From Gemmatimonadota bacterium (lineage in GTDB: Bacteria; JAAXHH01), in assembly GCA_009837395.1 (NCBI GenBank), contig VXTP01000015.1, positions 62,001-126,000 of the forward strand: a stretch of 64,000 bases of DNA, read 5' to 3'. Position numbers and translations under genes: made by a program. Every line of letters begins with the position of its first letter. Position 1 is the first letter of the stretch. Below are positions 1-47,526 of this stretch, one piece after another. The notes under the pieces are model-generated. The model was not told the DNA's origin, searched no databases, and saw nothing but the letters and a program-made list of their open reading frames with translations.

Positions 1-3000
1 GGCCTGCAGATCTACAGCAAGGGGAATGAAGAAGAATGGACGGTCCATGTAGAAGGGCGCATCGCTTCGGGCGCCCCCGATCCGGGAGACGGCCAGTCCG
101 GCCAGGCTGACCAGGCTGGCCAGGTTGACCGGCAGGTCGACCTGGAAACGCTGAAAGACGGTCTCTCGCCCGTGGACGTCGCGGGCTACTACCGCCACCG
201 GGCGAGTACGGGGGTCGATCTCGGTCCCAGCTTCCGCACGCTCGGCAACGCATGGTCCCGGCCGGGCGAGGCGGTGGCGGAGGTCTCTATAACGGAACCC
301 CACGACAGGGATGGGCTTGACGTGCATCCCCTCGTCCTCGACGGATGCTTCCAGGTCATGGGCGTTGCGCGGAACGTGGCGGAGACCGAAGGCGGAGCGA
401 CCTATCTGCCCTTCGGCTGGGAGCGGATGTGGCTGGCGGGGCCGCTGCCGGACCGGGTGGTCTGTCACGTGCTGCTTGGCGAATCCTCCCGCGGCGCCGA
501 AGCCCACCCGGACGAGACGCCGGAAGTACTGAGCGGCGAAATGCGGATTTACGATCCGAACGGCGCCCTGGTCGGCCGCCTGAGCGGATACACGGTGAAA
601 CGGGCGACCCGGGCAGCCCTGCTGGCGGCGGTCGAGGGCGTGAACGACCTGCTGTACGAGGTCGTATGGCGCGAGCGCCCCCTGGCCCCGGGAATCGAAG
701 CGGCGGACTTCTTCCCGAGTCCTTCGGAGATCGCGGACAACGCACAGTCGTTTACGGGCTACCTGACAGACGCCGGCGTGGATCCGGAGAACCGGAACGC
801 CCTGCTGGCGGACCTGGAGCGATGGTCGCGGTCCCGCGCACTCGCGTCGCTGGAGGAACTGGGATGGCAACGTGAGAAAGGCGCGGTGGTGGACCCCGAC
901 GATCTCAGGCAGGCGCTGGGTGTCCTGCCCGAACACACCCGACTCTTTCGCCGGCTTTTCGAGATGCTCGCCAGGTCCGGCGTAATGGAGGAGCGGGACG
1001 ACGGATTCCGCGTGGTTGTGGGACCGGAGGATCCGCTCCCCGACCATATGCCTGGCGACCTCGAGGCGTTCGCAGGCTGGATGAAGGACAGGTATGACCA
1101 GGGCCAGATCGAGATCGGGCTGTTCCTTCGGTCCGGCCTCGCCCTGGCGGAGGTGCTTCGCGGAAAAGAGGACCCCCTGACCCTCCTGTTCAGCAGTGGA
1201 GAACCGACGGCTGGCGATCTTTATCTGAAAGCGCCCGTCGCGCGGGCCGCGAACAGGATGCTCACGGAGGCGGTGCAGGCCCTCGTGTCCAAACTGCCGG
1301 AAGGACGGCGCCTCAGGGTGATCGAAGTCGGGGCCGGCACGGGGTCCGCGACCGCGTCCGTGTTGCCCGAGCTTCCGGAGGGCCGGTTCGTGTATACCTA
1401 CACGGATATTTCCGCGGGCTTCTTCTCCGAGGCGGAAGCCCGGTTCGGCGACCGTGGCGGAGCCATCGACTATCGCCCGCTGGATATCGAAAAGGACCCG
1501 ATCGAGCAGGGATTCGAGCCGCACGGTTACGACCTGCTGATCGCGTCGAACGTATTGCACGCGACACGGTACCTGACAGAAACCCTCGGTCACTGCAGGG
1601 ATTTGCTCGCGCCGTCCGGCCAACTGATCGCGCTCGAGAACCTCAGCGGACTGGGTTGGATGGACCTGACCTTCGGACAGCTCGACGGCTGGTGGCGGTT
1701 CGCCGACGATTACCGGCCCCACCACGCGCTGGCAGGGCCCGACGTATGGAAGCAGGCCCTCGGCGACGCGGGATTCGCGGAAGCGGAAGTGCTGGGACCC
1801 GACGGACCCGACGGACCGGATGGAACAGGCACACCAGACGGACCAGGCGGGCCGGATACATCGAACGCGTCCACGATCCTGGACAAAGGCGTGATCGTGG
1901 CCCAGGGACCAGCGAAGGTGTCCGAGTCTGCCGGCACGTGGATCCTCACCGAGGACCGGGCGGGACGCGCGGTGGAACTCGCGTCCGCGCTGGCGGAGCG
2001 GAACCAGACGGTCTACCTGGTGCGGGACGGCGACGCAGCGGACGACCAGCCCGCCGCCACCGACCCGGGTATCGTCAGGACCACCGCGGAATGGGGGCAA
2101 CGCGAATCGTGGCGAACGCTGATCGAAGGCCTGCCGCAGGACGTACCCTTCGGCGGCGTCGTACATCTGGCTGGCCTGGACGGCCCCGGCGCGCAGGCCG
2201 CCACGGTAGAACTGGCCGCGGAAGTGCAGCGCGCCGGAGCCTGTGCCCTCGCACTCGTGCAGGGACTGATCGATACCGATTCGACCCCGGCCAGGGGCGT
2301 CTGGTTCATCACCCGGGGGTCCCAGGTACTGGAACGGGAACTCGGTGGTGAACTGGCGGGCGCCGCCCTTTGGGGCTTCGGCAAGGGGGTGGCCCGCGAA
2401 GCGCCCCATCTGCAACCACGGATGCTGGATCTGGACCCCGCGGAGCTCGCACCGGATCCCGGTCTCGTCAATGAACTCATGTACCCGGACGATGAGAACC
2501 ACATCGTCTACCGGCGGGAAGGCCGCAAGGTGGCACGGCTGGTTCGCATGGGAGACGGATCCGACCGCCTGGACTTTCCGGAAGACCAGGAATGGGTGCT
2601 GGCGCCCGACCCTGCGGGCGTGTTCGACCAACCCTTTGTACAGCCGCTCCCACCGCGCCCGCTCGAACCCCGGGAAGTCCGGGTCGCCGTCGAGGCGGCC
2701 GGGCTCAATTTCTGGGATGTATTCCGGTCCCTCGGTTTCATCGAAGAGGGGCTCCTGGGCCGGGAGATGTGCGGCGTGATTACCGAGGTGGGCGACGAAG
2801 TATCGTCCGTCTCCGTGGGCGATCACATAGTGGGACTGGGCTTCGGCGCCTTCGCGCCGCTCATGATCACCCATGGGGACCTCGTAGCGCCCGCACCGGA
2901 GGGGTTCTCCGTCTCCGGGCTCGCCACGGTGCCCAGCGCCTTCGTATCCGCCGCGCTTTCCTTCGAATACTCCGGACTCGAGGCGGGAGAAAAAGTGCTC

Positions 3001-6000
3001 ATTCACGCCGGCGCCGGCGGGGTGGGCCTGGCGGCCGTCCAGCTGGTTCAGGCCGCGGGGGCCGAGGTCCATGCCACGGCAAGCGCCCCGAAACAGGCCT
3101 ATCTCCGTTCGCTGGGCGTTGAACACATTTACGACAGCCGCACGACGGCATTCGGAGCGGAGATCCTCGAAGCCACGGATGGAGAAGGTGTGGACGTGGT
3201 CCTGAACAGCCTGACGGGCGAGGGGTTCATCGACGCCAGCCTGTCCTGTCTCAAGCCCGATGGCCGATTCGTGGAAATGGCCCGGCGCGACATCCTGACC
3301 GGGGACGAGATGGCCGCGCTCCGTCCCGACGTGGCCTACGACATCCTGGAGCTGGATGTACTGAAGAAGACGGATCCCGCCTGGGTCGGCCGCGTCCTCA
3401 GAGGTATCATGGAGCGCCTGGTTTCGGGAGAACTCAAACCCATCATCCACAGCCGCTGGCCCCTGGCCGAAGCGGGCGCCGCCCTGTCCTTCATGCGGTC
3501 CGCCCGTCATCTCGGAAAGATCGTCGTTACGCCGCCCCCGCTGGTCACAGGCCGATTGAAGAAGGACCGCACCTACCTGGTGACGGGGGGACTGGGCGGC
3601 ATCGGTTGCGCGGTGGCCGGCTGGCTCGCGGACCGCGGCGCCGGCACGATCGTGCTTAACGGCCGTCGCCAGCCGGACGCGGAAGCCGAAGAAGCCATAC
3701 AGGAACTCCGGGAGCGGGGTGTGGCGGTACAGGTGGAACTGGCGGACGTGACGGACCTGGACGCGGTGGACGCTATGCTCGAGCGCATGGACCGGGATCT
3801 CCCGCCCCTGGGCGGGGTGATCCACAGTGTGGGCGTGCTGTCGGACGGCGCGCTGGGGAACCAGCGCTGGGAGAACTTCGAGACCGTGTTGCGGCCCAAG
3901 ATTCTGGGCGCCTGGCATCTGCACCAGGCGACCCGGGACCGGGACCTGGATCTGTTCGTGCTCTTCTCGAGCCGGGTCGGCGTCATGGGCAACCCGGGCC
4001 AGGCGAACCACGCCATGGCCAACGCGTTCCTGGACCAGTTGGCCGGCCACCGACGGGCGTTGGGGCTTCCGGGACAGGCCATTGCCTGGGGCGCCTGGTC
4101 GGAGATCGGCGAGGCGGCGGAGCAGAAGGATCGGATCGAAAGCCAGCGCGCGGCCCTCGGCGGCCGCTGGTTTACCCCGCAGCAGGGCCTGAGGGCGCTG
4201 GACCGGCTGGTCCGGCAGGACGGGACTCATTCCGTGGTCATGGCGATGGACTGGGCCGTGTTCGAAGAAGCAGCGGAAAGCCGGCCGCCCCTGCTCGAGG
4301 ACCTGCTTGCGGCAGCCCAGGAGGCGGCGGAAGAGGCGCCGGAATCCTCCTCGGACGACGTCCTGACCCGCCTGCGGAACACACCTTCCGCGGAGCGGGA
4401 GAACGTGTTGGTTTCCTTCCTGCAAGGGGAAGTGCAGTCGGTGCTTCGGTTGTCGTCCACCCCCGCGCCTACCGTGGGGTTTTTCGACCTCGGCATGGAT
4501 TCACTGATGGCGGTCGAACTGAGGAACCGGTTGAATCGCGCCCTTGCGGGCAGCTACACGGCGCCCAATACCCTGGTTTTCGACTATCCGGATATCTCGT
4601 CTCTCGCCACCCACCTGATGGACGAGATCGGCGACGCGGAATTGGAAGGCGGCGATCCTGAATCCGGCGGCGGCAGTGGAAGCGAAGCCGCGGGTTCGGA
4701 AGCGCCTGCCGGATCCGGCCGCTTTGCCATCGCCTCTCCGGATGCGCCTACCAGGCAGGAGAGCAGTGCCACTGCCGCCCATGAGGCCGTCGCCCCGGAT
4801 GCGCCCACCGGGCCCGCAAGCGGTGCCGTTTCCCGGACCGAAAACGAGGGCATTGCCATCATCGGCATGGCGTGCCGTTTCCCCGGCGCGCCGGACCTGG
4901 ACGCCTTCTGGAGCATGCTGGAAGAAGGTACGGATGCCGTCACAGACGTGCGTCCCGACACCGGTTCGGCGAGTGTATCGCCGGATGGGCCGGACCAGGG
5001 CGACGAAGGTTGGCGTCGCGCAGGGTTCATAGACGACATAGACCAGTTCGATGCGAGGTTCTTCAGGGTATCGCCACTGGAAGCGCGCAGCATGGATCCC
5101 CAGCAGCGGCTCCTGCTGGAGACGAGTTGGCACGCGATCGATGACGCGGGAATCAATCCCGACGGGCTTCGAGGTTCCCGTACGGGCGTGTACACGGGCA
5201 TAGCTTCCAGCGAGTACCGCGATCTGATGCAGAGCCGTGGCGGCGGGGTCAATTTCCTGGGTACCGCAAGAAGCCTGGCCGTAAGCCGGATATCCTTCCT
5301 GTTGGGTCTGGAAGGTCCCTCGGTACCCATGGAACTGAATTGCGCTTCTGCGCTGTTCGCCGTTCACCAGGCCGTGGCCAGCCTCCGTCTCGGAGAAGTA
5401 GACCTGGCCCTGGCCGGCGGCGTGAACACGGTGTTGTCCCCCGATATCACGGCGGAAATGGCCTACCTGGGCATGCTGTCCAATCAAGGCCGTTGCTACG
5501 CCTTCGACGCCAAAGCGGACGGTTTCGTGCGCGGCGAAGGCTGCGGCGTGGTCGTGTTGAAACGATTAAGCGATGCGCAGGCGGACGGCGATCGCATCTG
5601 GGGCGTGATCCGGGGTACCGCGACCAATCAGAACGGCGCGACCGCGGGTCCTACGGTGCCCAACGGCCCCGCACAGGAACGCGTGATCGAAGACGCGCTG
5701 GCGCAGGCGGGCATCATTCCCGCGGAAGTGGACTACCTGGAAGCCCATGGCGCCGGTTCGGCGCTGGGCGACACGATCGAGGTGCAGGCGGCCGCCGCGG
5801 TTTACGGCAGGGGACGGGCGCCGGACCAGCCGCTCCTGGTCGGGTCGGTGAAGACCAATATCGGCCATCTCGAGTCCGCTGCCGGTCTCGCCGGACTGAT
5901 CAAGGTGGTCATGGCGATTCGCCACAGGCGCATTCCGAAGCAACTGCACTTCGAAAAGCCGAACCCGAACGTGGAATGGGACCGCCTTCCCGTGCGGGTG

Positions 6001-10964: not shown

Positions 10965-13900
10965 TCAGAAGCTCATGCGTGCAAGGAGGCCGATGCGATG
11001 GTCGGATGCGCCATGCCGGTCGACCCGCGCGCCGGAAAGCTCCAGGGATCCCATGCGCGAACCGAGGTCCGCGGCGCCTATGCGGGCGCCCAGCCGTAAC
11101 TGACGGCGTTCATCCCCGTCGAGGTACAGGTCGCCGAAGGGGGTGACGAGCACGCCCGTGGGCGACGAAGCGAGACCGTATCCCACCTCGGCCCGCATGG
11201 AACGGGCGCGGCTGCCGCCGCGCAAGGTGGAGGCGGCCAGGGGCCGTTCGCGCCACATCGTGCCGGAGTCCGTGGTTCCGGCGCCCATGCGCGGCGCCAC
11301 GGACATCGAAAGACCCCGGCCGTCCGCATTCGGCCTCAGATAAGCGACGAGCGAAACGCCGTTCTCTCGGTATCCCTCGGCCGAATGGACTGCAAGGAAA
11401 CGACCCCGGGCATTGAGGCCGACGCGGCCGCCGGTCAGGCGGAGTCCGCCGGAGACCTCGAGGCCCTGTCCGGTCTGGCCGTCGCCACCGTCGTAGCGTC
11501 CGGCCACCTGCGCGTAGGGCGTTACTGTGGTTCCACCCGCGAGAGCGGTCGAACGCGACCCTTCCAGGCCGACGCGTATCCGCTGCACGCCGGTCGCAAT
11601 GTCGCTCAGCGCGGCCGATTCACTGTCGGAGGTGGAAAGGCGGAGCAATCCCGCGTCGCCCACCAGGTCGAGCCCCAGACCGCCCGAGGAGGCCAGCCGG
11701 GACCGTGCGCCCAGCATGCCCATGCGCATGGACAGGTCGCTTGTGCCATCTTCCACCTCGACTTCGCCGGTGCCGAGTCCCACGATCGACCACACTTCCG
11801 TGAACCCGGTGGGGCAGGTCCAGTGCAGGTACGGCAGCACCGCGTTAAGGCGAGATTCCAGGCTGCCGCTTGCCACGGTAACGTCGTAGTCGGACTGGCC
11901 CATCGTGCGCGAAAGGGCGATGCCCGCCAGCCAGCTGCGCCCCGTGGCCACGTCAAACCCGAGAAACGCCGTTTTGAGGTCTCCGTCATAGCTGGCGTCA
12001 ACACTGGGCTCACCCTGGAAGTTCTGCAGGTCGCCCGCGCCCCAGACGGACCATCTGAGCCCCCCGCTGCCGTTTTGATCCTCCAGCGCGTAGGAGAACG
12101 AACTCGTCCGCAGCAGGTAGTCGCCGCTTGCGCCACGGCGGCGTTCCGCGCCCTGGAGCAAGGCCATCTCCCTCGATGCGGTCTGCCGGCCGTGGCCGGT
12201 CAGTCCGGCCAGCGCCGTGATGCCCGATGCGAGTCCGTCGATCCTGCGGCCTCCCACGGTGATCTCCCGTCCACCACCCGCGGTAAACCTGCCGCCTATG
12301 GTGGCGGAGACGCCGGACAGCATGCTCCGTCCCATGGCCGCCAGGATGTTCGTGTAGGCCTCCCGTTCCGCCGCGACGGCCGTGACGGTCACGCTGACGG
12401 CCAGACTCGCCTCGCCCGCCGCGTTACGGGCCGAGACAGTGACCGTGGCGCCGCCTTTTCGCACCCCCGTTACCGTCAGCGCGGCGCCCGACATGACCGC
12501 TTCGACGACGCCGTTGTCCGTCGAGATCGCCGAATAACTCAGATCCGTGCCGCTGAACAGCGTACCCGCGTTGACCGTCTCGTCGTCTCCCGCCTCCAGC
12601 GTAACCGCGGGCGGGGTGCCGATCGTAGCGGGAGCATCATAGGAATCGGTTACCGAAATCGTGGCGGAATCGAGGTCCACATCTCCGCTGCGGGCGGTAA
12701 TGACAATCGTCTCGCCCCCTGATTCGTAAACCGTGTCGTCCGCGACCGTAAACGTCAGTTCCGTCGACCCCTCCGTCGCCCCGGCGGGTATCGTGATGAC
12801 CAGATCACCCGTGACGCTGTAATCGTCGGCGGTGGCCGTGCCGGACAGAGAAAGGTCGATCACCGACGCTACCCTAATCGGCGCGCTGGACTGCGTGGCC
12901 GTCACCGTCACTGTCTGGGCCCCGCCATCCTCGGTCAACGTGGAGGGAGATACGGTCAGGACGATCTCCGGCGGACCATCGGGTGCAGGATCGTAAAGCC
13001 CCGACCCGATGATGACGTCGATCGGGAGGACGCTTCCATCTGCCCTCGGGAATTCATCTTTGAACCGGCGGGCGTATCCCAACTTGGGGATGTCCGCGCT
13101 GTCGGTGTCGTCCGTGGGGTCGTCGAAGTAATACTCCACGAAGCCGCCTTCCGGGTTGCTTTTCGCCGCTTCGATGACCTGTGGCAGAATGAGTTCTCCG
13201 GTCACGACGTCCCGCACGGTCGCTACCAGGGGCCTTAGCTCGAATCGGTCCGGAAACGCCCCATGAACCAGGATCGTGTTGCTGTTGAGGTCCAGAACGT
13301 AGAGGTACACGGAACCGTGTCGCCAGGGTCCGTTCGGATCTCTCAGGGCAACCCTGGATTTCGTGGAAGAGGCGCGACCTTCAGTCTGGAAGAGATTGAG
13401 AAAGTACTTCCCCGCTTCACCGACAAAGGCCTTCAGGGTTTCCCGGTCCACCACCTCGCTGGCGGTAATGGCCGGGTCGCCGTAATCGATGACTTCTTCA
13501 TCCAGGTGCGTTTCGTTCAGGTTGAATCCCGCGAGCAGCAGGACCGGGACGCCAAGATGCTCCGAGAAGTAGCTGCCGGCATGGCCGGAGGCATCGGGCA
13601 CACCAAAGCGGGCCCCATCGAATGCGCCGTCCGGTTCCTGCGACAAGAGGTTGTTGAGGGCGGCTAATGCGGGTACTCGGATGGCGGGATCGGTCGATTG
13701 CAGCTTGGCCAGATCGGCAGGCGTGACGCCCAGCGCAGTCAGGATCGCGGTATAGATCGAGGCTTTGATGCGCCGTCCCGACAAGGCCATTTGCTTCGCG
13801 TGAACGTACACCCTGCGATCGAGCGTCAGTTGTACGAGGTAGGTGGAGCCGGAACGGTAAGGCCCCCCTTCCTGCCTGATGAGACACAGATTGTACAGGT

Positions 13901-15230: not shown

Positions 15231-15342
15231 CGGAGGCCTCCTTCGCGAGGTGGTAGTGTGAGGCAGTAATACACCGCGGTTTGCGTAACTTATCAACCCG
15301 GTTGTCCGGTCAAGGCTATGATTCGAATCTTCTCAAAGGACG

Positions 15343-17663: not shown

Positions 17664-20600
17664 CAGTTCCCCTTTGTCCGCCATCTCCGAAAACCGGCCC
17701 CGATTCAGTCCTGAAGAGGCCGGCGAACTCGCCCGTTCCCTGTATGGCGTTAACGGCACGTTGCACGCGTTGCCGAGCGAGCGCGATCAAAACTTCCGAG
17801 TGACAGCCGGCAACGGCGAGGCGTTCGTCCTCAAGATCTCCGGCGCGGGCGAGCGGCGCGCCATACTCGACCTCCAGCACGCCGCCCTGGAACACCTGTC
17901 CGCGCAGTACAAAGAAGCCGCCTGGCCCCGGGTTTGCCGCACGAGGGACGGCGAGGCCATCACCCGGGTCGATGGACGCGATGGACTACGTCACCTGGTC
18001 CGGATGCTGACCTACGTCGACGGACGGCCCCTTTGCGACGTCAAGCCGCACAGTCCCGGCCTGCTGAATCACCTCGGCGCCTTCCTCGGACAGCTGACCC
18101 GCGCATTCGCCGGTTTCTCCCACAGGGAAAAGCAGCCGGACCTCATCTGGAACATGGACAACGGACCGGACATCGTGCGCCGGTACGCCGGTCTGATCCC
18201 CGATGCAGGGCGGCGCGACCTGGTCATGGGTTTCTGCGAAGCGTACGAACAGGCCGTCGGGCCCTGGCTCGACACCCTTCCGCGCCAGTTCATCCATAAC
18301 GACGCCAACGACCAGAATGTCCTGGTCCGCCGGGCCAGCCGGGCCAGCCGGACCAGCCGGGTCAGCCAGGCCCACCCCGAAGACCCGGCTCCGAGCGAAC
18401 TGGAAGTGGCCGGCCTGATCGACTTCGGCGACATGGTTCATTCCTGCGCGCTCTTCGAACCGGCCGTCGCCGCCGCCTATGTCATGCTCGGCAAGTCAGA
18501 CCCCCTCGCGGCGGCCGCCCACGTCGCGGCCGGATACCATGCCGAGCACCCGTTGACGGAACTGGAACTGAAGCTGTTGTACCACTGCGCCGTGATGCGG
18601 CTCTGCATGAGCGTGGCCATCTCGGCCCACCAGCAGGTCGCCGAACCGGAGAACGCCTACCTGTCCGTCAGCGAGAAGCACGCCTGGGACCTCCTCGAAA
18701 AACTCGAGGACGTCCCCCCATCCTTCGCGGAATACCTGTTCCGGGACGCCTGCGGACTGCCGCCCTGTCCGCAGACCCCGGGCATCGAAGCGTACCTTTC
18801 ATCGAAGCGCGGCGCCTTCGCACCGGTCATGGGTCCCGATGTGGACCTCTCCACCGCCCTGGTATTCGATCTCAGCGTGAGCAGCGCTGACCGGGCCCTG
18901 CTAGGAGGTTCCATCGGCGTGGACGACCTTGCCAGGGAGGTTTTCCGGCGCATGGAGGAAACCGGGGCCGAGGCGGGGATCGGCCGGTACGACGAGGCAC
19001 GGCAGGTCTACACCGCCGGGCAGTTCGGCCTGGACTCCGATGAAATGCCGGAACGCCGGACCATCCACCTGGGCATGGATGTCTTCCTGCCCGCCGGATC
19101 GCCGGTCTTCGCGCCGATGGAGGGAAAGGTCCACAGCTTCAGGAACAACACGCAGCCGCTGGACTACGGCCCCTGCATCATACTGGAACATGCTGCGGAA
19201 GCACCGGAAGGCACGGCCGGTTCGGAAGGCACGGCCGGTTCGGAAGGTCCGGCCGGTTCGGCCCCGGCGTTCTATACGCTGTACGGGCATCTGAGCGTCG
19301 AGTCGCTCAACGGGCTTTTCGAGGGCAAGCGGATCGAAAAAGGGGAACAATTCGCAACGCTCGGCGACACTTCGGTAAACGGCGGGTGGCCGCCCCACCT
19401 CCATTTTCAGGTCGTCACCGACATGCTGGGCAAGAAGGGTGATTTCCCCGGCGTGGGCGGACCGGGCCAGCGGAACGTCTGGCGCAGCCTGTCCCCGGAC
19501 CCGAACGCCATACTCGGCGTGCCCGCCGGAGCGTTCCCGCCGGACCAGCGGACGGGGCGGGAGGTCCTGTCGTCCCGCCGCGAGCACATCGGCAGGTCCT
19601 TGAGCGTCTCCTACCGGCGTCCCCTGAAGATCGTCCGGGGCCACATGCAGTACCTGTACGACGAGGAGGGCCGCGCTTTCCTCGACGCCGTGAACAACGT
19701 GCCCCACGTGGGACACAGCCATCCCCGGGTGGTCGCCGCGAGCCACCGGCAGATGGCGGTGCTGAACACCAATACCCGCTACCTGCACGACAACCTCGTG
19801 GACTACGCCGAACGCCTCTGCGCGAAGCTGCCCGAACCGCTCCGCGTGTGTTTCTTCGTGAATTCCGGGAGCGAGGCCAATGACCTTGCCCTCCGCCTGG
19901 CGCGGACCTGGTCTGGACAGAGGGACCTGCTCATCCTCGACGGCGCCTACCACGGCAACCTGACGTCCCTGGTCGACATCAGCCCGTACAAGTTCGACGG
20001 TCCGGGCGGCGAAGGCGCGCCGCCCCATGTCCACAAGGTGCCGCTGCCCGACCCCTACCGCGGGCCGTACAAGGGCTATTCGCTGGAAACAGGCGCGCGG
20101 TATGCAGAGCACGTACGCGAACGGATCGATGCGCTCGCGGAACGGGACCGCGGCATCAGCGCGTTCATCGCCGAGTCCCTGCCCGGTTGCGGCGGGCAGA
20201 TCGTGCTGCCGGACGGCTATTTCAAAGAGGCATTTGGGCGGGTGCGCGCAGCGGGCGGGGTGTGCATCGCCGACGAGGTGCAGGTGGGATTCGGACGCGT
20301 GGGTTCGCACTTCTGGGGATTCGAGACCCAGGATGCGGTTCCGGACATCGTCACCCTGGGAAAACCGATCGGGAACGGCCACCCGTTGGGTGCGGTGGTT
20401 ACCACCCCCGAGATCGCGGGCGCTTTCGACAACGGCATGGAGTATTTCAACACCTTCGGCGGGAACCCGGTCTCCTGCGCCATCGGCCTGGCGGTGCTGG
20501 ATGTCATCGAGGAAGAAGGGCTACAGGCCAATGCCCTGGAGGTGGGCGGCTACCTGCTGGAAGGGCTTCGCGCCCTGGCGCCGGACCGCCCGATCATCGG

Positions 20601-24339: not shown

Positions 24340-27090
24340 TCAACCCGTTTCCAGCCGCACTTTCGAGACCCTCGGGGTGCTTCCCCCGTTTTTCGCGCCC
24401 AGCGCGAGCCGGTACTGTACCCACGGTCCCGCGCCCTTGTCCCGTACCGGCTGGGGTGTTTCGTACCAGGTGCCCGCTCCCCCGGCGCCATGCCAGGCCG
24501 ATCGTGCCAGCGCCTCCTCCGAGTCCGCCCACCGGACCTGGGCGTGCACCCAGGTGCCCGGGCCGCGTTCCGCTTCCCAGTCTATGGCGGTCACGGCCTG
24601 CCCATGGGGTATCTCGTGGGGCGCCGAGACATAGTATTCTTCCGGACCCGCGTCCAGGATGTTTCCCGTCTGCACGGCGGTCATGCCGTGGGGGCCTGTC
24701 GTGGGCAGCCGGGTGACCCTCCTGGCGTCGAACCCGTCGGGACCGTTCCACCAGACGGCGGAATGGCCGACGTGGTCGCCCTCGACCTTGTGATAGGCGA
24801 TGGCGAGGTCGACGCGGCCGTCTCCGTCGAAATCCGCCGCCACGCAGCCCGAGGCGGAATGGGTGAACAGCCGGGTGCGGTCGTCGGCCGAGAATCCCCG
24901 GCCGGCACGATTCCAGTAGATGTAGGAATCGATGTCCCGCACGCGGTTGTCGTGGTAGGAGCAGACGAAGAGATCGAGCAGGCCATTCCCGTTGAAGTCC
25001 ATGATGGACATGGCGTTCACCGCGTTGGACGGCAGGAGGGTGCGGCGGTCCTCGCGTAGCCCGTCGGGACCGTTCCAGTAGATGTGCACGAAAGAGTCGT
25101 GGGGCGCTCCCATCGACGGCTCGTGTCCGCCGATGACCAGGTCGGGATACCCGTTCCCGCTGAGGTCCGCCGCCCGGGCGCAGGCGCCGTGCCACACGGA
25201 AAGCGCCTGGCACCGGTCCATGCTGAAGCCTTCCGGTCCGCCCCAAAGGATGAAACTGTAGTCGTCGGCGATCTGCGGCACGACCAGGTCGAGCCAGCCG
25301 TCGCCGTCCAGGTCGACGAGGAAGATCCAGCGCGGATCCTTGTACACGACGCCCTCGTATTCGAGCCGGATGCGCTCCGTTCGGCCGGAGTCGAAGCCGT
25401 CTTGTCCGCCGTAGAAGATGACGATATCCGGATTATCGAATCCGCAGAAGACGAGGTCCAGGTATCCGTCCCGATCCAGGTCCGCGCAGCAGACCCCGTG
25501 GGCCCGCACGGTCGGCAGGCGCACGTCCGGTTCGGTCCCGAAACGCCCTTCCTCGTTGTAGTACACGTAGGACCCCGGATCATGGCGGACCGAGTTCTCG
25601 GAGGCGTTGGCCAGGATCAGGTCGGGCAGCCCGTCGTCGTTCAGGTCGCATCGGAGCGCTTCCACCGCGCCCCACCCCGGCACTTCCTGGCGGCGTTCCG
25701 CCTTGAATCCGTCGGGACCGCCGTGATAGATGAAGACGGGGAGGTCGCCCTTCAGGTTCCGGCTGAACTGGTTGATGAAAACGGCCTGCGGAAGAGGATC
25801 GTCCGAGGAGCGGGCGATCAGCACCCGCCGGGCGTCATGGGTCTCGAGGACGCGCGACGGAGACAGCCCGTCCCGGCCCCAGCAGTACGCCAGGGATTCC
25901 GACGTATAGCTCTCCGGCGTATGGGTCTGGCAGATCACGATTTCGGACCGGCCGTCCCCGTCCAGGTCCCCGACGGCTGCATCGCAGGCGTAGCGGCTGG
26001 GGATCGCCGTGCGGTTTCGATTGCTGTACCCGCCTTCGTCCCCGTCGTGGTACAGCCACGAACATTCCTCCCCGCCGTGGCGGTCCCGGCAGGCCACGAC
26101 GAGGCCGCATCGACCGTCGCCGGCCAGGTCGCCCGCGGCGGCGGCGAAGGCGTTCCGGCAGGAAAGCCGGACCGGCGTCCCGGCCGCCCGTTCCCCTTCG
26201 AAGGGAACGAGATAGATCGCATCGGTCCGTGCGACGAATACATGAGGCGCACCCCGGATCCGGAGCACGGAGACCAGCGGTACGGCGGGATCGACCTCCT
26301 CGGGATAGCCATCGAGGTCCTGGTCCGCCTGGTCGGCCTGGTCCGCCTGGTCCGGTCTTCCGGGCAGATCCACATCGACGGGGACGTCCGAAGACCGCTC
26401 CGGCACGATTCCGTCCGGGCCGCCCCAGTACACCTGGACATTCCCCCGGGCGGTCCGGACGACCAGGTCGGCGTACCCGTCGCCGTCCAGATCGCAGGAC
26501 GCGGCCTGGTCCGCTTCGATGTCCAGGTCCCGGTAGCCGTTCGGTTCGAACCCCAGCGCCGTCTGGCGGAACAGCCGCAGCCCGCCGCCGGTTACGAAGG
26601 CCAGGTCCGGCCTGCCGTCGCCGTCGAAATCCCCCGCGGTCACCGAAGTGCAGCAGGGCGCGGGCAGGTACTGCACACGCCCTTCGCCGAGTCCGTCCGG
26701 GCCACCGTAGTACAGGAACGCGTTGAGATCCCGCCGGATGCCGTTGTAGAACATGCCGACCACCAGGTCGTCGAATCCATCCCCGTTCAGATCGGCGACG
26801 ACACCCGTTCTGGCCCCGTCGGACGGCAGGAACCGGGAAGTGGTCCGTCCGAGTACGTCATGATACAGGGTGACCGGGGGTTTTTCACCGTGGTTCTGGC
26901 TGTTGCAGAAGACGAGGTCGACGTGGCCGTCCCGGTCCAGGTCGAACTGGTGGATGCGTTGCAGCACCCCCGCCCGCGACACATAGAGATTCTGGCCGCC
27001 ATTGCCGAAGGCGCCGCGGCGGAAGGCCTCGAAACCCCGGGTTATCCATGGCGATGAGACGGAAGTGGAAGGAGGGGAGGGCATGGCCAT
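24340..27090 (-). CDS. FG-GAP/VCBS-repeat beta-propeller protein
   Basis: 916 residues made almost entirely of FG-GAP-type repeats. Calcium-binding loops such as DLDRDGHVDL, DLNGDGFDDL, DFDGDGRPDL and DLDGDGYADL recur about every 50-60 residues, with YGGPDG turns between them, predicting one or two beta-propellers that bind calcium. Unlike most family members I see no signal peptide at either candidate start (27090 or 27084), so its location is unclear; a missed upstream start is possible. There is no catalytic motif. The C-terminal 100 residues (WVHAQVRWADSEEA...) look like a separate beta-sandwich. It sits between the Bax1 nuclease gene and the nucleotidyltransferase gene in the same direction. 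Confidence 0.85.
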   Translation of the reverse strand: MAMPSPPSTSVSSPWITRGFEAFRRGAFGNGGQNLYVSRAGVLQRIHQFDLDRDGHVDLVFCNSQNHGEKPPVTLYHDVLGRTTSRFLPSDGARTGVVADLNGDGFDDLVVGMFYNGIRRDLNAFLYYGGPDGLGEGRVQYLPAPCCTSVTAGDFDGDGRPDLAFVTGGGLRLFRQTALGFEPNGYRDLDIEADQAASCDLDGDGYADLVVRTARGNVQVYWGGPDGIVPERSSDVPVDVDLPGRPDQADQADQADQDLDGYPEEVDPAVPLVSVLRIRGAPHVFVARTDAIYLVPFEGERAAGTPVRLSCRNAFAAAAGDLAGDGRCGLVVACRDRHGGEECSWLYHDGDEGGYSNRNRTAIPSRYACDAAVGDLDGDGRSEIVICQTHTPESYTSESLAYCWGRDGLSPSRVLETHDARRVLIARSSDDPLPQAVFINQFSRNLKGDLPVFIYHGGPDGFKAERRQEVPGWGAVEALRCDLNDDGLPDLILANASENSVRHDPGSYVYYNEEGRFGTEPDVRLPTVRAHGVCCADLDRDGYLDLVFCGFDNPDIVIFYGGQDGFDSGRTERIRLEYEGVVYKDPRWIFLVDLDGDGWLDLVVPQIADDYSFILWGGPEGFSMDRCQALSVWHGACARAADLSGNGYPDLVIGGHEPSMGAPHDSFVHIYWNGPDGLREDRRTLLPSNAVNAMSIMDFNGNGLLDLFVCSYHDNRVRDIDSYIYWNRAGRGFSADDRTRLFTHSASGCVAADFDGDGRVDLAIAYHKVEGDHVGHSAVWWNGPDGFDARRVTRLPTTGPHGMTAVQTGNILDAGPEEYYVSAPHEIPHGQAVTAIDWEAERGPGTWVHAQVRWADSEEALARSAWHGAGGAGTWYETPQPVRDKGAGPWVQYRLALGAKNGGSTPRVSKVRLETG
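26320..26355 (-). repeat. 9-bp minisatellite, family member D
   Basis: Four units; read along the gene they are gaccaggcg, gaccaggcc and variants, encoding an Asp-Gln-Ala repeat in a loop of the FG-GAP protein. Confidence 0.8.
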
Positions 27091-34953: not shown

Positions 34954-36183
34954 TTGGCGAATCGCATACCCTACCGGCAGTGGGGACGGGATCTGGACGC
35001 GCAGTCGATCCAGCAGATGGAGCGGGCCTGCGCGCTTCCCGTGGCCGTGGCCGCCGCGCTGATGCCGGACGCCCACGTGGGTTACGGCCTGCCCATCGGC
35101 GGCGTGCTGGCCACGGACAACGCGGTCATTCCCTACGCCGTGGGCGTCGACATCGCCTGCCGGATGAAGCTGACGGTCCTGGACCTGCCGCTGGGGACGT
35201 TGCGGCACGACCGGGGTACGGACCGTCTGAAGAAGGCCATCTCGGCGGAGACGCGCTTCGGCCTGGGAGCCCGTTTCAAGAAGCCCCGGCACCACCCGGT
35301 CCTCGACCGGAACTGGTCCGTCTCACCCGTAACCCGAAAAGCGAAGGACAAAGCCTGGAGCCAGCTGGGCACCAGCGGGAGCGGCAACCATTTCGTCGAA
35401 TTCGGCGAACTGAACCTGAAGGAGCCGTTGAAAGGGCTCGATACCGGCACCTACCTCGCCCTGCTTTCCCACAGCGGAAGCCGGGGGACCGGCGCCATGG
35501 TTGCCTCCCATTACAGCAGGCTGGCCATGTCCCTGCGCCCCGAGCTGTCCCGGGAACAGCGGCATCTGGCCTGGCTGGACCTGGACACCGAGCCGGGGCA
35601 GGAATACTGGGCGGCCATGGAGCTCATGGGCCATTATGCGGAGGCCAACCACGCATGTATACACCGGCACATGGCCGGCCACCTCGGTGCGGAAGTGTTG
35701 CTGGACCTGGAGAACCACCACAATTTCGCGTGGAAAGAAAAGATCTCCGTCCCCGGCCAGCACGTCCAGCACGGCCAGCACGGTCAACCCGGCCGTAGAC
35801 CGGACCGGAAAGCGATCGTACACCGGAAGGGCGCCACGCCGGCAGGCCCGGGCGTACTGGGCATCATTCCCGGCTCGATGGCGAGCCCGGCCTTCGTGGT
35901 CCGCGGGAAGGGAAACCGGGACGCCATGAACTCCGCCGCCCACGGCGCCGGCCGCGTGATGAGCCGGAAACGGGCGATCCGGAGCCTGGACTGGCAGGAC
36001 GCCAACCGGCTGCTCCGGGAGAAAGGCGTCACGCTCATGTCTGCCGGTCTCGACGAAGTCCCCTTCGTATACAAGAATATCGAAGCAGTGATGGCGGCGC
36101 AGACCGACCTGGTGGAGGTGGTGGCCCGCTTCGAACCCAGGCTGGTGAAGATGGCGCCGGCCGGCGAGCGTCCGGAGGACTGA
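34954..36183 (+). CDS. rtcB: RtcB-family RNA ligase
   Basis: 409 residues from a TTG start with gagga upstream. RtcB motifs are visible: MPDAHVGYGLPIGGV, GVDIACRM (metal-binding Asp and Cys; the usual form is GVDIGCGM), LGTSGSGNHFVEFG, SHSGSRGTG, NHHNF, HRKGATPAG and SAAHGAGR, whose His330 is expected to accept GMP. RtcB joins 2',3'-cyclic phosphate and 5'-OH RNA ends with GTP and manganese, in RNA repair. The GxC variant is shared by some RtcB paralogues, so canonical ligation is likely but not certain. A 9-bp minisatellite inserts a Gln/His/Gly-rich loop just before HRKGATP. The gene has no archease neighbour. Confidence 0.9.
   Translation: MANRIPYRQWGRDLDAQSIQQMERACALPVAVAAALMPDAHVGYGLPIGGVLATDNAVIPYAVGVDIACRMKLTVLDLPLGTLRHDRGTDRLKKAISAETRFGLGARFKKPRHHPVLDRNWSVSPVTRKAKDKAWSQLGTSGSGNHFVEFGELNLKEPLKGLDTGTYLALLSHSGSRGTGAMVASHYSRLAMSLRPELSREQRHLAWLDLDTEPGQEYWAAMELMGHYAEANHACIHRHMAGHLGAEVLLDLENHHNFAWKEKISVPGQHVQHGQHGQPGRRPDRKAIVHRKGATPAGPGVLGIIPGSMASPAFVVRGKGNRDAMNSAAHGAGRVMSRKRAIRSLDWQDANRLLREKGVTLMSAGLDEVPFVYKNIEAVMAAQTDLVEVVARFEPRLVKMAPAGERPED
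35755..35790 (+). repeat. 9-bp minisatellite, family member E
   Basis: Units ggccagcac, gtccagcac, ggccagcac, ggtcaaccc encode a Gly-Gln-His repeat in rtcB, between NHHNFAWKEK and HRKGATP where RtcB proteins usually have a short linker. Confidence 0.85.
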
Positions 36184-37345: not shown

Positions 37346-37407
37346 CGCGCGCCACGCCATTCGAGCCACGGCGATTACAGAAAGATGAAGCGCGGAAATC
37401 GAATTAA

Positions 37408-43181: not shown

Positions 43182-43298
43182 AACGCTACCGTGCTCCTTT
43201 ACTCCGTTCTGCTACTTTTTTCAGTCCCGTCTACAGGTCTTTTCGCCCAAAAACACAGGGCGGTAGCATAACGCCGCGAAGCAACCGTGTCAACCGAT

Positions 43299-44209: not shown

Positions 44210-44238
44210 TTGACGTCCCGGGCGGCCGCCGGTACCAT
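44210..44238 (+). promoter_or_regulatory. Sigma70-like promoter for the flippase gene
   Basis: -35 TTGACG (44210-44215), 17-nt spacer, -10 TACCAT (44233-44238), 75 bp before the flippase ATG, in the divergent region shared with rlmB. Match quality is moderate. Confidence 0.4.
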
Positions 44239-44312
44239 ATCGGTGCTCAGCGCCTGGCTTCCGCCCCCTCCCGAGGCGGTGAGAACCCTGACCGCCCGCA
44301 AACTCAGAATCC

Positions 44313-45779
44313 ATGTTCCAAGGCCTCAAAAGACTCACCACCCATTCGGCGATCTACGGTCTCAGCGACGTGCTGGGCAGGTCCATGGCCTACCTGCTGG
44401 TACCGGTGTATACCCATGTCATGCCCGTGGAAGAATTCGGCTACTACGGGCTCGTATATACCTTTATCGCGCTGGCGAACGTCGTCTTCCTCTACGGCAT
44501 GGATTCGGCCTTTCTCAGGTACTACGTGCTCGAGGAGGACCGCAAGCGGGATACGCTGAGCACCGGCTATCTCACCATGCTGCTCACGTCAGCCGGGCTC
44601 GCCGTGATCATCGTCCTGTTCTCCGCCAGGATCGCGCCCCTGATCGCCGTCTCCGCTTCCCTGACTTCGTACGTCCAGCTGGCCGCCGCCGTCCTGGCGC
44701 TCGATGCCCTGAACGCCATTCCCTTCGCGCGGCTGCGAGGAGAGGGCAAGGCCGCGACGTTCGCCTCCCTCAAATTGATGAAGGTCATGATCGAACTGGG
44801 GGGAAACTGCTATCTCGTCGTCGTGCTCGATATGGGGCTGCAAGGCATACTGATCAGCAACATCGCGGGGTCCGGGATCGTTTTCCTCATCCTGGCGGGC
44901 ATTACCCTGCGGCACATGTCCTTATCCTGGTCTCGAGGTACCATGGGCCGGCTCCTGGGATTCGGCCTGCCCTACGTGCCCGCCGGCGCCTGCATCATCA
45001 TCATCGAAACCATCGACCGCCTCATGCTGGAACGGATGGCCGGCACGGAGACCCTCGGCATCTACCATGCTGCCCGCAAGCTGGGCGTCGGCATGCTCAT
45101 CTTCGTCACCATGTTCAGGCAGGCCTGGCAGCCCTTCTTCCTTGAGACCTCCAGGGAGGAAAACCCCAGGCCGCTGTTCGCCCGCGTGCTGACCTACTTC
45201 CTGGCCATCGCGGGCGGCGTCTTCCTGGCCCTTTCCTTCCTCATCGACGACCTGGTCCGCATCTCCATCGGAGGCTATACTCTGATCGAGGCGTCATACT
45301 GGGAAGGGATCGACGTGGTACCGATCCTGCTCGCGGCGTACGTGTTGTATGGGATATACGTCAACCTCACCGTGGGCGTCTACCTGGAGAAGAAGACCAT
45401 CCTGCTACCCTTCATCACGGCCGCATCGGCCCTGGTCTGCATCCTGACGAACCTCTGGCTCATCCCGGAATTCGGCATGTACGGGGCGGCTACGGCGTCG
45501 GCGGCCGCCTACGCGGTGATGGTGGCCGGGTTGTATCTCGTGGGCCGGAGGTATTACCCGATACCCTACGAATACATCCGCCTGCTCAAGGTAGTCTTCG
45601 CGTGTGGAGTGCTGTTCGCGGTGCGCGAACTAACCGGAATCGCCTGGCCCGGGGAGATCGCCTGGCCCGGGGAGATCGCTCTGATCGCGGCCTACCCGGC
45701 GGTCCTGTGGGCGATGAGATTCTTCAACGCCGGAGAAATGGCGTTCGCGAGACGATACCTGCGCCCTCGCGGATCGTGA
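44313..45779 (+). CDS. Polysaccharide/lipid-linked oligosaccharide flippase (Wzx-like, MOP superfamily)
   Basis: 488 residues with about 12-14 hydrophobic segments and the usual family start (KRLTTHSAIYGLSDVLGRSMAYLLVPVYTHVM, with MPVEEFGYYGLVYT). Family members flip lipid-linked sugar repeat units across the inner membrane for O-antigen, capsule or similar polymers. No glycosyltransferase genes are adjacent, so the polymer is unknown. The ATG has no good Shine-Dalgarno. The last 56 bp overlap the end of the convergent CRTAC1 gene, and a perfect 18-bp duplication lies near the C-terminus. Confidence 0.88.
   Translation: MFQGLKRLTTHSAIYGLSDVLGRSMAYLLVPVYTHVMPVEEFGYYGLVYTFIALANVVFLYGMDSAFLRYYVLEEDRKRDTLSTGYLTMLLTSAGLAVIIVLFSARIAPLIAVSASLTSYVQLAAAVLALDALNAIPFARLRGEGKAATFASLKLMKVMIELGGNCYLVVVLDMGLQGILISNIAGSGIVFLILAGITLRHMSLSWSRGTMGRLLGFGLPYVPAGACIIIIETIDRLMLERMAGTETLGIYHAARKLGVGMLIFVTMFRQAWQPFFLETSREENPRPLFARVLTYFLAIAGGVFLALSFLIDDLVRISIGGYTLIEASYWEGIDVVPILLAAYVLYGIYVNLTVGVYLEKKTILLPFITAASALVCILTNLWLIPEFGMYGAATASAAAYAVMVAGLYLVGRRYYPIPYEYIRLLKVVFACGVLFAVRELTGIAWPGEIAWPGEIALIAAYPAVLWAMRFFNAGEMAFARRYLRPRGS
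45639..45674 (+). repeat. Perfect 18-bp tandem duplication
   Basis: Two identical copies of atcgcctggcccggggag encode a duplicated IAWPGE hexapeptide in a loop of the flippase. The lack of any difference suggests a recent event. Confidence 0.85.
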
Positions 45780-47526
45780 TGAGCTGGCCGCCCTCTACGC
45801 CGGTTGCGACGTCTCTCGCGCCGCCGGGCCAGTCCACGATGACCGAGTCCGCCCCGGCGTATGCGCCGAGCCCGAAGTGAGCCCTGAGATCGTTGGCCGC
45901 CAGGTAACTGTAGGCGCTTCGAATCTCCCGCGACTGTCGCACGGCATCCGTGACCACGGTTACGTGCGCGCCAATGCCGTTTCGATTGCTCCGGACGCCC
46001 TCGGTGGCGACGAGCAGGCTGGCGGGACCGGGCTGACCGGGCTGATCGCCGTTTCCGCCGCCTTCTCCGGCCCCAATTACGCCGGCCGCACCGCCTGCAC
46101 TTCGCCCGTTAATCCCGTCGTTCCGCAGCAGCAGCGGGACGTCATTCACCGTGGTGACCAGCACGTCGACGTCGCCGTCGTTGTCCACGTCCCCGAAGGC
46201 CGCGCCGCGGTGCACGCGCTCTACCTGGAAGGGTGGGCCCGCTTCAGGGCTGACGTCGGTGAACACGCCGCCCCCCTCGTTCCGGAACAGCTGATTGGTC
46301 TGCGCGTAGGCTATCGTCGAATCGAACAGGGAGATGTTGTCGATCACGTGGCCGTTCGCCGCGAAGATGTCCAGCCACCCATCGTGGTCGAAATCCTTGA
46401 AGGCCGTACCGAAACCCAGGAACAGGAGCGTGGGATTGCCCACACCTGCGCCGAAAGTCGTTTCGGTGAAGGTGCCGTTCCCGTTGTTCCGGTGCAGCGA
46501 GTTGGGTTCCAGGGAGAAATTGGTCACGTAGAAATCCGGCGACCCGTTCCGGTCGTAGTCTCCCATATCCACCCCCATGCCCGCCCGGGCGACGCCGTCT
46601 TCGCCATAGGCCACGCCCGCCAGCAGGGCCATGTCGGTAAACGTGCCGTCGCCATTGTTCCGGTACAGGAAATCCGGCGTCAGGTCGTTGGCCACGAAGA
46701 TATCCGTCCATCCGTCGCCGTCGTAGTCGCCTCCCACGACCCCGAGGCCCTTGCCGTCCGGATTCGAGATACCCGACTCCACGGAGACGTCGGAAAACGA
46801 ACCATCGCCGTTGTTCCGATACAGCAGATCGGCCGCTCCCTCGTAGATGTCGGGTCCGCAGTAGGACTGGATGCCGTCCCGGGAGCAGCGCCTGTTGGCC
46901 TCGAAGTCGAATTCGACGTACGCACACACGTAGAGGTCCAGGTGCCCGTCCCGGTCGTAGTCCAGGAACGCCGCGCTGGTGGAGAACGTGGGGTTAGCGG
47001 GTACCGTCAGATTCGCACGGGCGGTCACGTCCCTGAATGTCCCGTCCCCTTCGTTCCGGTAGAGGATGTTCGCCCCGTAGTTCGTGACGAACAGGTCGTC
47101 GTCGCCGTCGTTGTCGTAATCCGCGACGGCCAGGCCCATCCCGTAACCCCCCTCGTTGCCCACGCCGGCCTGGCCGGTCACGTCCGTGAAGGATCCGTCG
47201 CCGTTGTTGCGATAGAGGACACTGGACAGGGGCTGGTCGGGCACGAAGCCCGGTATGGACGCGCCGTTGAGCAGGTAGACGTCGAGGTCGCCGTCGCCGT
47301 CATAGTCGATGAACCCGCCGCCGGACGCCACCGTTTCGAGGAAATAGTACCGGCCCGATTTGCCGTTGGTGTGCCGGAACGTGATCCCGGCCGAAGGCGC
47401 GATGTCCGTGAACTGCACGACCGGCCGTTCCGCATCAGGTCGATGATCGGGCTGGCCAGGCTGGCCAGGCTGACCGCAGGAAGGGGAAAGGAAAAGGAAG
47501 GAGAGAAGTACCAGCGCCCATTTCAA
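45724..47526 (-). CDS. CRTAC1-family lipoprotein (FG-GAP repeats plus ASPIC/UnbV domain)
   Basis: About 600 residues from TTG 47526, which overlaps the previous stop in a TTGA junction and yields a lipoprotein signal (MKWALVLLSFLFLSPSC, lipobox Cys17). FG-GAP/VCBS calcium loops follow (DYDGDGDLDVY, DYDNDGDDDLF, DYDRDGHLDLY, DFDHDGWLDIF and others), then the C-terminal ASPIC/UnbV domain (SNRNGIGAHVTV, HFGLGAYAGADSVIVDWPGG). Such proteins are cell-surface or periplasmic; their function is largely unknown, possibly carbohydrate or protein binding. It is last in the minus-strand block from the TonB receptor. Minisatellites sit right after the lipid-modified Cys and at the start of the ASPIC domain. 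Confidence 0.88.
   Translation of the reverse strand: MKWALVLLSFLFLSPSCGQPGQPGQPDHRPDAERPVVQFTDIAPSAGITFRHTNGKSGRYYFLETVASGGGFIDYDGDGDLDVYLLNGASIPGFVPDQPLSSVLYRNNGDGSFTDVTGQAGVGNEGGYGMGLAVADYDNDGDDDLFVTNYGANILYRNEGDGTFRDVTARANLTVPANPTFSTSAAFLDYDRDGHLDLYVCAYVEFDFEANRRCSRDGIQSYCGPDIYEGAADLLYRNNGDGSFSDVSVESGISNPDGKGLGVVGGDYDGDGWTDIFVANDLTPDFLYRNNGDGTFTDMALLAGVAYGEDGVARAGMGVDMGDYDRNGSPDFYVTNFSLEPNSLHRNNGNGTFTETTFGAGVGNPTLLFLGFGTAFKDFDHDGWLDIFAANGHVIDNISLFDSTIAYAQTNQLFRNEGGGVFTDVSPEAGPPFQVERVHRGAAFGDVDNDGDVDVLVTTVNDVPLLLRNDGINGRSAGGAAGVIGAGEGGGNGDQPGQPGPASLLVATEGVRSNRNGIGAHVTVVTDAVRQSREIRSAYSYLAANDLRAHFGLGAYAGADSVIVDWPGGARDVATGVEGGQLITIREGAGIVSRTPFLRR
46024..46050 (-). repeat. 9-bp minisatellite, family member F
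   Basis: About three units; along the gene ggcgatcag, cccggtcag, cccggtccc, encoding Asp-Gln-Pro-Gly-Gln-Pro-Gly-Pro at the start of the ASPIC domain, where relatives have a short LLRNDGGN-x-NWL turn. Confidence 0.75.
47449..47475 (-). repeat. 9-bp minisatellite, family member G
   Basis: Three units; along the gene ggtcagcct, ggccagcct, ggccagccc, encoding Gly-Gln-Pro repeats immediately after the lipobox cysteine of the CRTAC1 lipoprotein. Confidence 0.85.

What the first reader, a model, noticed from the sequence alone, without database searches (positions are those of the whole stretch)
91..47475. A 9-bp minisatellite family (core GGYCAG) inserted in frame into at least six unrelated genes
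Seen directly: tandem 9-bp units at 91-135 (PKS), 18331-18372 (kinase fusion), 26320-26355 (FG-GAP), 35755-35790 (rtcB), 46024-46050 and 47449-47475 (CRTAC1 lipoprotein) share GGCCAG, GACCAG or GGTCAG. In every case the motif lies in the same orientation relative to transcription. The reading frame differs (Gly-Gln-Pro in one gene, Arg-Ala-Ser in another), so the conserved object is the DNA, not the peptide. The reverse complement of the unit has no stop in any frame, so stop avoidance does not explain the orientation. Inference: a DNA-level process such as slippage at a preferred motif, or a very small mobile repeat, is seeding coding regions.
Basis: partly seen in the sequence, partly recalled or inferred. 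Interest (0 to 1): 0.75.

Follow-up and report, generated by a model that had tools for sequence, protein, structure and literature searches.

The report
Genus-wide nine-base repeats in genes
A genus of uncultured bacteria keeps making short head-to-tail copies of a nine-base DNA word, mostly inside its genes, which lengthens loops of everyday proteins by three amino acids at a time; the likely mechanism is ordinary, but the liking for one DNA word is not explained.

Summary
The arrays are real and far above chance. They belong to a genus-wide excess of 9-bp (and 18-, 27-, 36-bp) tandem repeats: 30-94 period-9 arrays per Mb in samples of this genus, 0 in 400 kb of two sister genera, 3 in 616 kb of GC-rich outsiders. 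The shared DNA word is better written GRCCRGGCN than GGYCAG. It occurs in tandem at 23 loci in 1.09 Mb, against a mean of 1.1 (maximum 7) for 120 permuted words, and in 12/12 genomes of the genus but 0/4 others of the phylum. The claim 'always the same orientation' fails: both orientations and five of six codon phases are used. Orthologous sites show 0 to about 7 units in 9-bp steps, several with a one-unit allele. That supports local duplication and slippage at a preferred word, filtered by protein function, and argues against a tiny mobile element. MutS, MutL and the Pol I 5'-nuclease were found in nearly all genomes searched; no reverse transcriptase or IS4-type transposase common to the genus was found; DNA-structure tests were negative. 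Why this word is preferred is unexplained. I file it as a new variant of lineage-specific short-tandem-repeat proliferation.

The parts
90..135 (+). 9-bp array in a modular polyketide synthase gene (ORF 1-7452 +); encodes GQSGQADQAGQ; motif on sense strand; G007 carries 2 more units, G001 lacks it, three relatives have no anchor
1795..1824 (+).
18329..18372 (+). 9-bp array in the APH kinase / M23 peptidase / class-III aminotransferase fusion gene (17593-20856 +); encodes [12 protein letters not shown]; motif antisense; the site is 36-90 bp long in five relatives, flanking margins included
19205..19261 (+). 18-bp array in the same fusion gene (EGTAGS repeats); 27-bp version in G002
26319..26354 (-). 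9-bp array (GGACCAGGC) in the FG-GAP protein gene (24340-27090 -); encodes DQADQADQADQ; one unit in G001, four to six in the other five genomes
35754..35794 (+). 9-bp array in rtcB (34954-36183 +); encodes GQHVQHGQHGQP; 0 to about 7 units in relatives; overlaps a low-confidence loop (residues 271-281) of the predicted fold
45639..45679 (+). 18-bp tandem duplication (IAWPGE twice) in ORF 44313-45779 +; single copy in G001; not of the GRCCRGGCN family
46024..46050 (-). 2.2-copy 9-bp array (GGTCAGCCC) in the CRTAC1-like lipoprotein gene (45724-47715 -); below the score cut-off of my array lists
47449..47475 (-). 2.6-copy 9-bp array in the same lipoprotein gene, read as GQPGQPGQP directly after a lipobox-like LSPSC; one unit in G001 and G002, two in G010, three in G000, G006, G007
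   Evidence: the refined gene caller put the start downstream and called it non-coding

Best explanation
In this genus (nearest named genomes: Candidatus Latescibacterota), short tandem duplications of about 9 bp and more arise and persist often. A pre-existing copy of a preferred 9-bp word (GRCCRGGCN on one strand, NGCCYGGYC on the other) is duplicated in place, most likely by strand slippage during replication. Two copies make further slippage easy, so copy number then moves in 9-bp steps while units decay by point mutation. Within genes almost only lengths that are multiples of three survive, and probably mainly in loops and linkers where three extra residues per unit are tolerated. Shown: the excess, the genus specificity among the genomes held, the shared word, 9-bp steps at orthologous sites, single-unit alleles, use of several codon phases and both strands. 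Inferred: slippage as the enzymatic mechanism, the direction of change, and tolerance rather than benefit. Not explained: why this word is preferred.
For: Density: 7 arrays in 232 kb (G000, stretches not chosen for arrays) and 21 in 400 kb (G006, evenly spaced), against 0 in 200 kb each of G012 and G013 and 3 in 616 kb (40 loci) of GC>0.60 outsiders. With at least 2.4 copies required, period 9 stands out: 42 coding and 15 non-coding, against 1 and 5 for period 10 and 2 and 3 for period 12. Motif convergence 6.96 bits per array, against at most 4.95 for random genomic 9-mers and at most 4.54 for permuted units (30 draws each); 23 loci against a mean of 1.06, maximum 7, for 120 permuted words. 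Genus specificity: 12 of 12 in the genus, 0 of 4 elsewhere in the phylum. Orthologous sites: RtcB 0/1/2/4 units; window sites 47460 (1,1,2,3,3,3 units), 26336 (1 unit against 4-6), 20807 (1 unit in G010 against 5 in G002), 45658 (one 18-bp unit against two). In pairwise alignments gap lengths have local peaks at 9, 18, 27 and 36 (for example 76 at 9 against 59 at 8 and 35 at 10); 38% of the 76 nine-base gaps match an adjacent 9-mer at 7/9 or better, against 2% of 82 six-base gaps (the 15 pairwise comparisons are not independent, and one-base gaps are the commonest, 705). Within-array unit identity 6.64/9 against 5.06/9 between arrays (arrays were chosen for self-similarity). A G007 array of the word lies between two convergent gene calls. 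Coding arrays are almost all 3n long: 4 of 295 rows are not (rows overlap between multiples of a period, and orthologues of five relatives are included). The antisense phase that would encode Ser-Ala-Trp repeats holds 1 of 39 arrays.
Against: Plain slippage does not predict one preferred word, and no DNA-structure test explains it: hairpin energy, same-strand complementarity, antiparallel self-complement and internal repetition were no better than in permuted units. mutS and mutL were found in all 11 genus genomes searched (G011 was not among them) and the Pol I 5'-nuclease in 11 of 12, so no slippage-prone defect was identified. The 0-to-1 step in rtcB is not an obvious neighbour duplication and its direction is not established. 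62% of the 76 nine-base gaps did not pass the neighbour-duplicate cut-off. Codon-aligned genes show no peak at 3 codons (20, against 19 at 2 and 23 at 4).
Confidence: 0.66

Rival explanations
1. A very small mobile repeat: 9-bp units copied from one locus and inserted into others.
For: One word recurs at many unrelated loci. Array-masked coding DNA is also enriched in related words (CCGGTCCG 299 against 162 expected, CAGCCTGG 122 against 63). An insertion of one exact unit (GCGGACCAG) at window 25819 is seen in G007 and G002 but not in G000; in G002 the 9-mer upstream matches it at only 5 of 9 (by reading).
Against: Units are locus-specific: 0 of 500 shuffles reach the within-array identity (arrays were chosen for self-similarity, which helps this result). 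Single-unit alleles exist at the same places. For the 25819 insertion the 9-mer upstream in G007 matches at 7 of 9 (by reading), so a decayed local duplication is possible.
Confidence: 0.07
2. Protein-level selection for tripeptide repeats (collagen-like Gly-X-Y or flexible linkers); the DNA word is a by-product of codon use.
For: Some arrays are in collagen-like proteins (L062, L221). Many encode Gly/Pro/Gln/Asp-rich peptides. The Trp-coding phase is nearly empty. Most arrays are in genes.
Against: The same word is read as PGG, TRR, DQA, VRL and GPP in different genes (phases, residues by translation of the word). Permuted words with the same letters are rarely repeated. A G007 array of the word lies between two convergent gene calls. 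Four of 19 perfect-fit arrays lay outside called genes, but this is weak: 47450 is coding by my reading, L022:12181 was called coding, and L220:13961 lies in a 647-codon open frame.
Confidence: 0.12
3. Loss of a repair function (mismatch repair or flap processing) makes all short repeats unstable.
For: Tandem repeats of many lengths from 9 up are raised against G012. The MutS linker itself carries a 9-bp array in G000 and is 33-78 residues long in 9 genomes of the genus.
Against: MutS1 and MutL matches in all 11 genus genomes searched (MutS of G005 and G010 below the cut-off, as split or partial matches; G011, G012 and G013 not searched). The YQLSLF motif and C-terminal part of MutS are present in the 8 genus genomes read in frame and in G006. 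Pol I 5'-nuclease in 11 of 12. Linker length against array count gives rho 0.54, p=0.14, n=9. A general defect would not favour one word.
Confidence: 0.08
4. Footprints of a transposon with a 9-bp target duplication and a palindromic target (CC-R-GG centre), later expanded by slippage.
For: Period 9 and the near-palindromic core resemble target duplications of IS4/Tn5/Tn10-type elements (recalled).
Against: DDE_Tnp_1 matches in 4 of 12 genus genomes, none in the other 8, G000 included. Self-comparison (300 bp or more, 80% or more) of 703 kb of G000 gave three repeat pairs, two of them local duplications and one dispersed 2-kb pair at 86%, which lies in an RHS-repeat gene and not in a transposase; 467 kb of G006 gave none. 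Draft assemblies can hide such copies, and other transposase families were not tested.
Confidence: 0.03
5. Chance, GC composition or assembly artefact.
For: GC-rich coding DNA favours such letters; most relatives are draft assemblies of many contigs.
Against: Triplet shuffles give 0.2 against 22. GC-rich outsiders have 3 in 616 kb. Independent assemblies agree on sites while differing in copy number, including assemblies of 7 and 9 contigs.
Confidence: 0.02

Closest known systems
Heptameric repeats of Xanthomonas (GGGAATC) and Nostoc (GGGGAYT), PMC4692102 (passages read)
   Same: One short word in tandem at many places across a genome, on both strands, in certain lineages
   Different: Unit 7 nt, G-quadruplex-forming and with a strong bias to non-coding DNA there; here unit 9 nt, mostly inside genes, and not favouring hairpins (G-quadruplex formation was not tested)
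Tandem repeats of Xylella fastidiosa, PMC1574315 (passages read)
   Same: Genome-wide set in which 6-9 bp motifs dominate, in coding and non-coding DNA
   Different: The passages read describe no single shared 9-bp word and no in-frame 9-bp steps at orthologous sites
De novo tandem repeats in the Burkholderia PenA beta-lactamase gene, PMC4169377 (passages read)
   Same: Duplications in loop-coding DNA; three of eleven are assigned to replication slippage between direct repeats
   Different: One gene under drug selection; the other eight are linked to same-strand complementary sequences, which are not enriched in the units here
Rickettsia palindromic elements inserted in frame in genes (recalled, not looked up)
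   Same: Repeats placed in frame in unrelated genes
   Different: Those are mobile elements of about 100-150 bp (recalled); here 9-bp units appear to grow in place

Membership tests
Slippage-driven short tandem repeats (VNTR / minisatellite) | Head-to-tail units with period-specific excess over shuffled sequence | tested here: met
Slippage-driven short tandem repeats (VNTR / minisatellite) | Copy number differs between relatives in whole units at orthologous sites | tested here: met
Slippage-driven short tandem repeats (VNTR / minisatellite) | Polymorphic within a species | not testable with these tools
   one genome per species is held
Lineage-specific single-word tandem repeats (heptamer type) | One word recurs at many loci and is absent from sister genera | tested here: met
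   two genera of the same family and two of the same order compared
Lineage-specific single-word tandem repeats (heptamer type) | Mostly in non-coding DNA | tested here: not met
   period-9 arrays: 51 coding, 20 called non-coding, several of the latter in real ORFs
Mobile in-frame repeat | Same element at unrelated loci, empty sites without a seed | tested here: not met
   units differ between arrays; single-unit alleles at 47460, 26336, 20807 and 45658; the rtcB 0-unit allele is a possible exception
Hairpin-stabilised expansion repeats | Units fold better than permuted units | tested here: not met
   42 distinct units, median percentile 0.61 where 0 is most stable

The most novel reading that the evidence does not exclude
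The genus has a motif-directed process, enzymatic or replicative, that duplicates a defined 9-nt DNA word (GRCCRGGCN) wherever it occurs, in any codon phase, and so steadily lengthens protein loops by three residues: a sequence-specific duplicator rather than general slippage.
Probability: 0.13. Interest if true: 0.82.

Novelty: new variant of a known kind. Interest (0 to 1): 0.5.

Why it matters
The nearest single-word repeat outbreak in the passages read (heptamers of Xanthomonas and Nostoc) is mostly in non-coding DNA. Here one bacterial genus shows a 9-bp word multiplying inside conserved genes, rtcB and mutS among them. Orthologous alleles from 0 to about 7 units are available in one genus, so birth, growth and decay of coding repeats can be read directly, and the use of codon phases helps to separate mutation from selection. 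If the word preference has a specific cause, it would be a new kind of sequence-directed mutation.

Tried and rejected
Hairpin stabilisation of slipped strands: not supported. Same-strand complementarity, antiparallel self-complement, internal direct repetition: no excess over permuted units. Mismatch-repair loss: mutS and mutL found in 11 of 11 genus genomes searched. Flap-nuclease loss: Pol I 5'-nuclease in 11 of 12 genus genomes (not found in G005, a draft in 520 contigs). Vsr nicking at CCWGG: Vsr in 7 of 12 genus genomes and 0 of 4 others, but not in G007 or G002, which are rich in arrays. Telomerase-like reverse transcriptase: RVT_1 in 6 of 12 genus genomes, not in G000. IS4-type footprints. 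Uptake-sequence-like abundance of single words: the ten words tried show no excess over a high-order Markov model, but some related words show nearly two-fold excess over synonymous-codon shuffles, so left open. Hidden lag-9 periodicity outside arrays: slight only.

The tool's own control for patterns (pattern read backwards) was set aside. It counts as high as, or higher than, the pattern itself in several genomes (27 against 16 in G000). GGRCCRGGC read backwards is a rotation of itself, and GGYCAG read backwards (GACYGG) is part of GACCGGGCT-type units of the same family, so these counts neither support nor weaken the motif. The permutation test was used instead.

My first gene caller called several coding arrays intergenic; of ten such open frames, Pfam showed TsaE, a HAD hydrolase, an aminotransferase, a permease and two collagen-like proteins in six and nothing in four. 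Searches use a better caller, which still miscalls some (47450 for one), so the non-coding counts are upper bounds. In one search two of the 11 MutS fragments (G006, G007) were translated in a wrong frame and are not used; one search recovers G006. Stretches L017-L036 lay on contigs, some around sites, already known to hold arrays; the densities I rely on come from L057-L076 and L219-L238. In one search, three of the 17 site clusters have no anchor in G000 (one of them repeats site 20807), and other sites lack anchors or have overlapping anchors in some genomes; no state was read from those.
Full report
WHAT IS THERE.

WHERE IT IS FROM. The window is G000:C42:62001-126000 of a 3.8-Mb draft genome. 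Of the 80 best named rtcB relatives, the six nearest (87-93% identical) are metagenome genomes, five called Candidatus Latescibacterota and one Gemmatimonadetes. Twelve genomes of the genus are held.

MORE THAN CHANCE. In 458 kb of this genome there are 22 exact lag-9 self-matches of 12 or more bases, against 0.2 after local triplet shuffling; 18, 27 and 36 also peak (sample partly chosen around arrays). Without that choice, densities are 30 per Mb (G000, 7 in 232 kb) and 52 per Mb (G006, 21 in 400 kb), against 0 in 200 kb of G012, 0 in 200 kb of G013 and 3 in 616 kb of 40 GC>0.60 loci from other taxa. Requiring 2.4 copies, period 9 gives 42 coding and 15 non-coding arrays in 1.09 Mb; no other period from 7 up exceeds 15 coding or 6 non-coding (both period 18). 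Periods 5 and 6 are numerous too (79 and 61), but at least as dense in the GC-rich outsiders (88 and 64 in 616 kb). The sister genus G013 has heptamer and octamer repeats and no period-9 array in its sample.

THE WORD. Phasing the units of 57 arrays (both strands, all rotations) gives C-C-R-G-G-C-N-G-R, that is GRCCRGGCN, at 6.96 bits per array; random genomic 9-mers reach 4.95 at most and permuted units 4.54 (30 draws each). Tandem copies of the word occur at 23 loci, against a mean of 1.06 and a maximum of 7 for 120 drawn from 560 cyclic permutation classes. Across the phylum as held (16 genomes) it is found in 12 of 12 of the genus (4 to 76 overlapping matches each) and 0 of 4 others. The looser GGYCAG pattern is found in 12 of 12 of the genus, 0 of 4 from the same family or order, and 2 of 23 more distant genomes.

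ORIENTATION AND PHASE. Phased to the motif, perfect fits are 9 sense, 6 antisense and 4 outside called genes; fits of 7 or better are 26, 13 and 9 (p=0.05 for sense against antisense), so a mild lean is possible and a fixed orientation is not. Codon phases among the 39 coding arrays are 7, 8 and 11 (sense: PGG, TRR, DQA) and 8, 4 and 1 (antisense: VRL, GPP, SAW; residues by translating the word). The Trp-coding phase is nearly empty, which suggests that proteins filter a process acting on DNA. One array of the word, in G007, lies between two convergent gene calls.

HOW IT GROWS. In RtcB the window has four GQx-like units, L079 two, L077 and L078 one, L080-L082 none, and the more distant relatives aligned lack the whole loop. 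Syntenic relatives have 0, 1, 6 and 7 (by length). The model puts it in a low-confidence loop, residues 271-281, between two strands (mean pLDDT 74.9, loop below 50). At window sites compared with five relatives, unit numbers change in 9-bp steps, and at 47460, 26336, 20807 and 45658 at least one genome keeps a single unit. Some arrays are seen in one relative only (G002 at 20807; G007 at 37387), so births may be recent. Pairwise DNA gaps have local peaks at 9, 18, 27 and 36 bases on top of a majority of short gaps. Codon-aligned genes show peaks at 6 and 9 codons (27 and 16) but none at 3 (20, against 19 at 2 and 23 at 4), with 1 codon the commonest (40) (23 genes, pairs not independent). Units within an array are more alike than between arrays.

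MECHANISM. The simplest account is local tandem duplication of a pre-existing word followed by slippage, with a filter for length 3n and for tolerated residues. No cause for the word preference was found. mutS and mutL were found in 11 of 11 genus genomes searched and the Pol I nuclease in 11 of 12. A 9-nt loop would in any case be expected to escape mismatch repair, which acts on loops of a few bases (recalled).

AGAINST KNOWN SYSTEMS. Heptamer repeats of certain Xanthomonas and Nostoc are the nearest kind (PMC4692102, passages); 6-9 bp repeats dominate in Xylella (PMC1574315, passages); de novo duplications, three of eleven assigned to slippage between direct repeats, are shown for a Burkholderia beta-lactamase (PMC4169377, passages). 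A survey of prokaryotes reports repeats of 4-11 nt units as in general normally represented (PMC4060949, passages). For Latescibacterota or Latescibacteria with 'tandem repeats', the searches gave no paper and one paper on Poribacteria (listing only); a paper on sponge-associated Latescibacterota has no occurrence of 'tandem' in its main text (PMC12993501, term search and passages). The listings showed no title or abstract start on a genus-wide 9-bp coding repeat. The library misses most subscription journals, so this is weak evidence of novelty.

VERDICT. A new variant of a known kind, with an unexplained word preference.

Noticed in passing
L028:9810-9919 (G000:C23:134810-134919): The MutS linker before the YQLSLF motif holds a DGA-type 9-bp array. 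The linker is 33-78 residues in nine genus genomes and 21 in G014; a link to array number is not significant (rho 0.54, p=0.14).
   Followed up: partly
L047-L056 (G013, same family): Another genus of the family carries 7- and 8-bp repeats (for example CAATCAC, AAATCACC) and no period-9 array in 200 kb, so the preferred period differs between genera.
   Followed up: no
G000 and G006 coding sequence, arrays masked: CCGGTCCG and CCGGACCG occur nearly twice as often as synonymous-codon shuffles predict (299 against 162, 283 against 155); they are not among the 16 top 8-mers listed for G012 or G013.
   Followed up: no
window 12994-15115: A 1048-bp tandem duplication, 94% identical, within the long minus-strand ORF 10965-15296.
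   Followed up: no
L017:2008-4015 and L065:3-1986: A dispersed 2-kb pair at 86% identity inside a long gene with a weak RHS-repeat match.
   Followed up: partly
window 17593-20856: One ORF joins an APH-type kinase, an M23 peptidase and a class-III aminotransferase; nearly full-length matches in 11 of 12 genus genomes, one with an internal stop codon.
   Followed up: no
G002, G006, G001, G010 orthologues of 45724-47715: The match over the lipoprotein ORF contains one TGA in each of these four genomes, so the start of the window ORF is probably set too far upstream.
   Followed up: no
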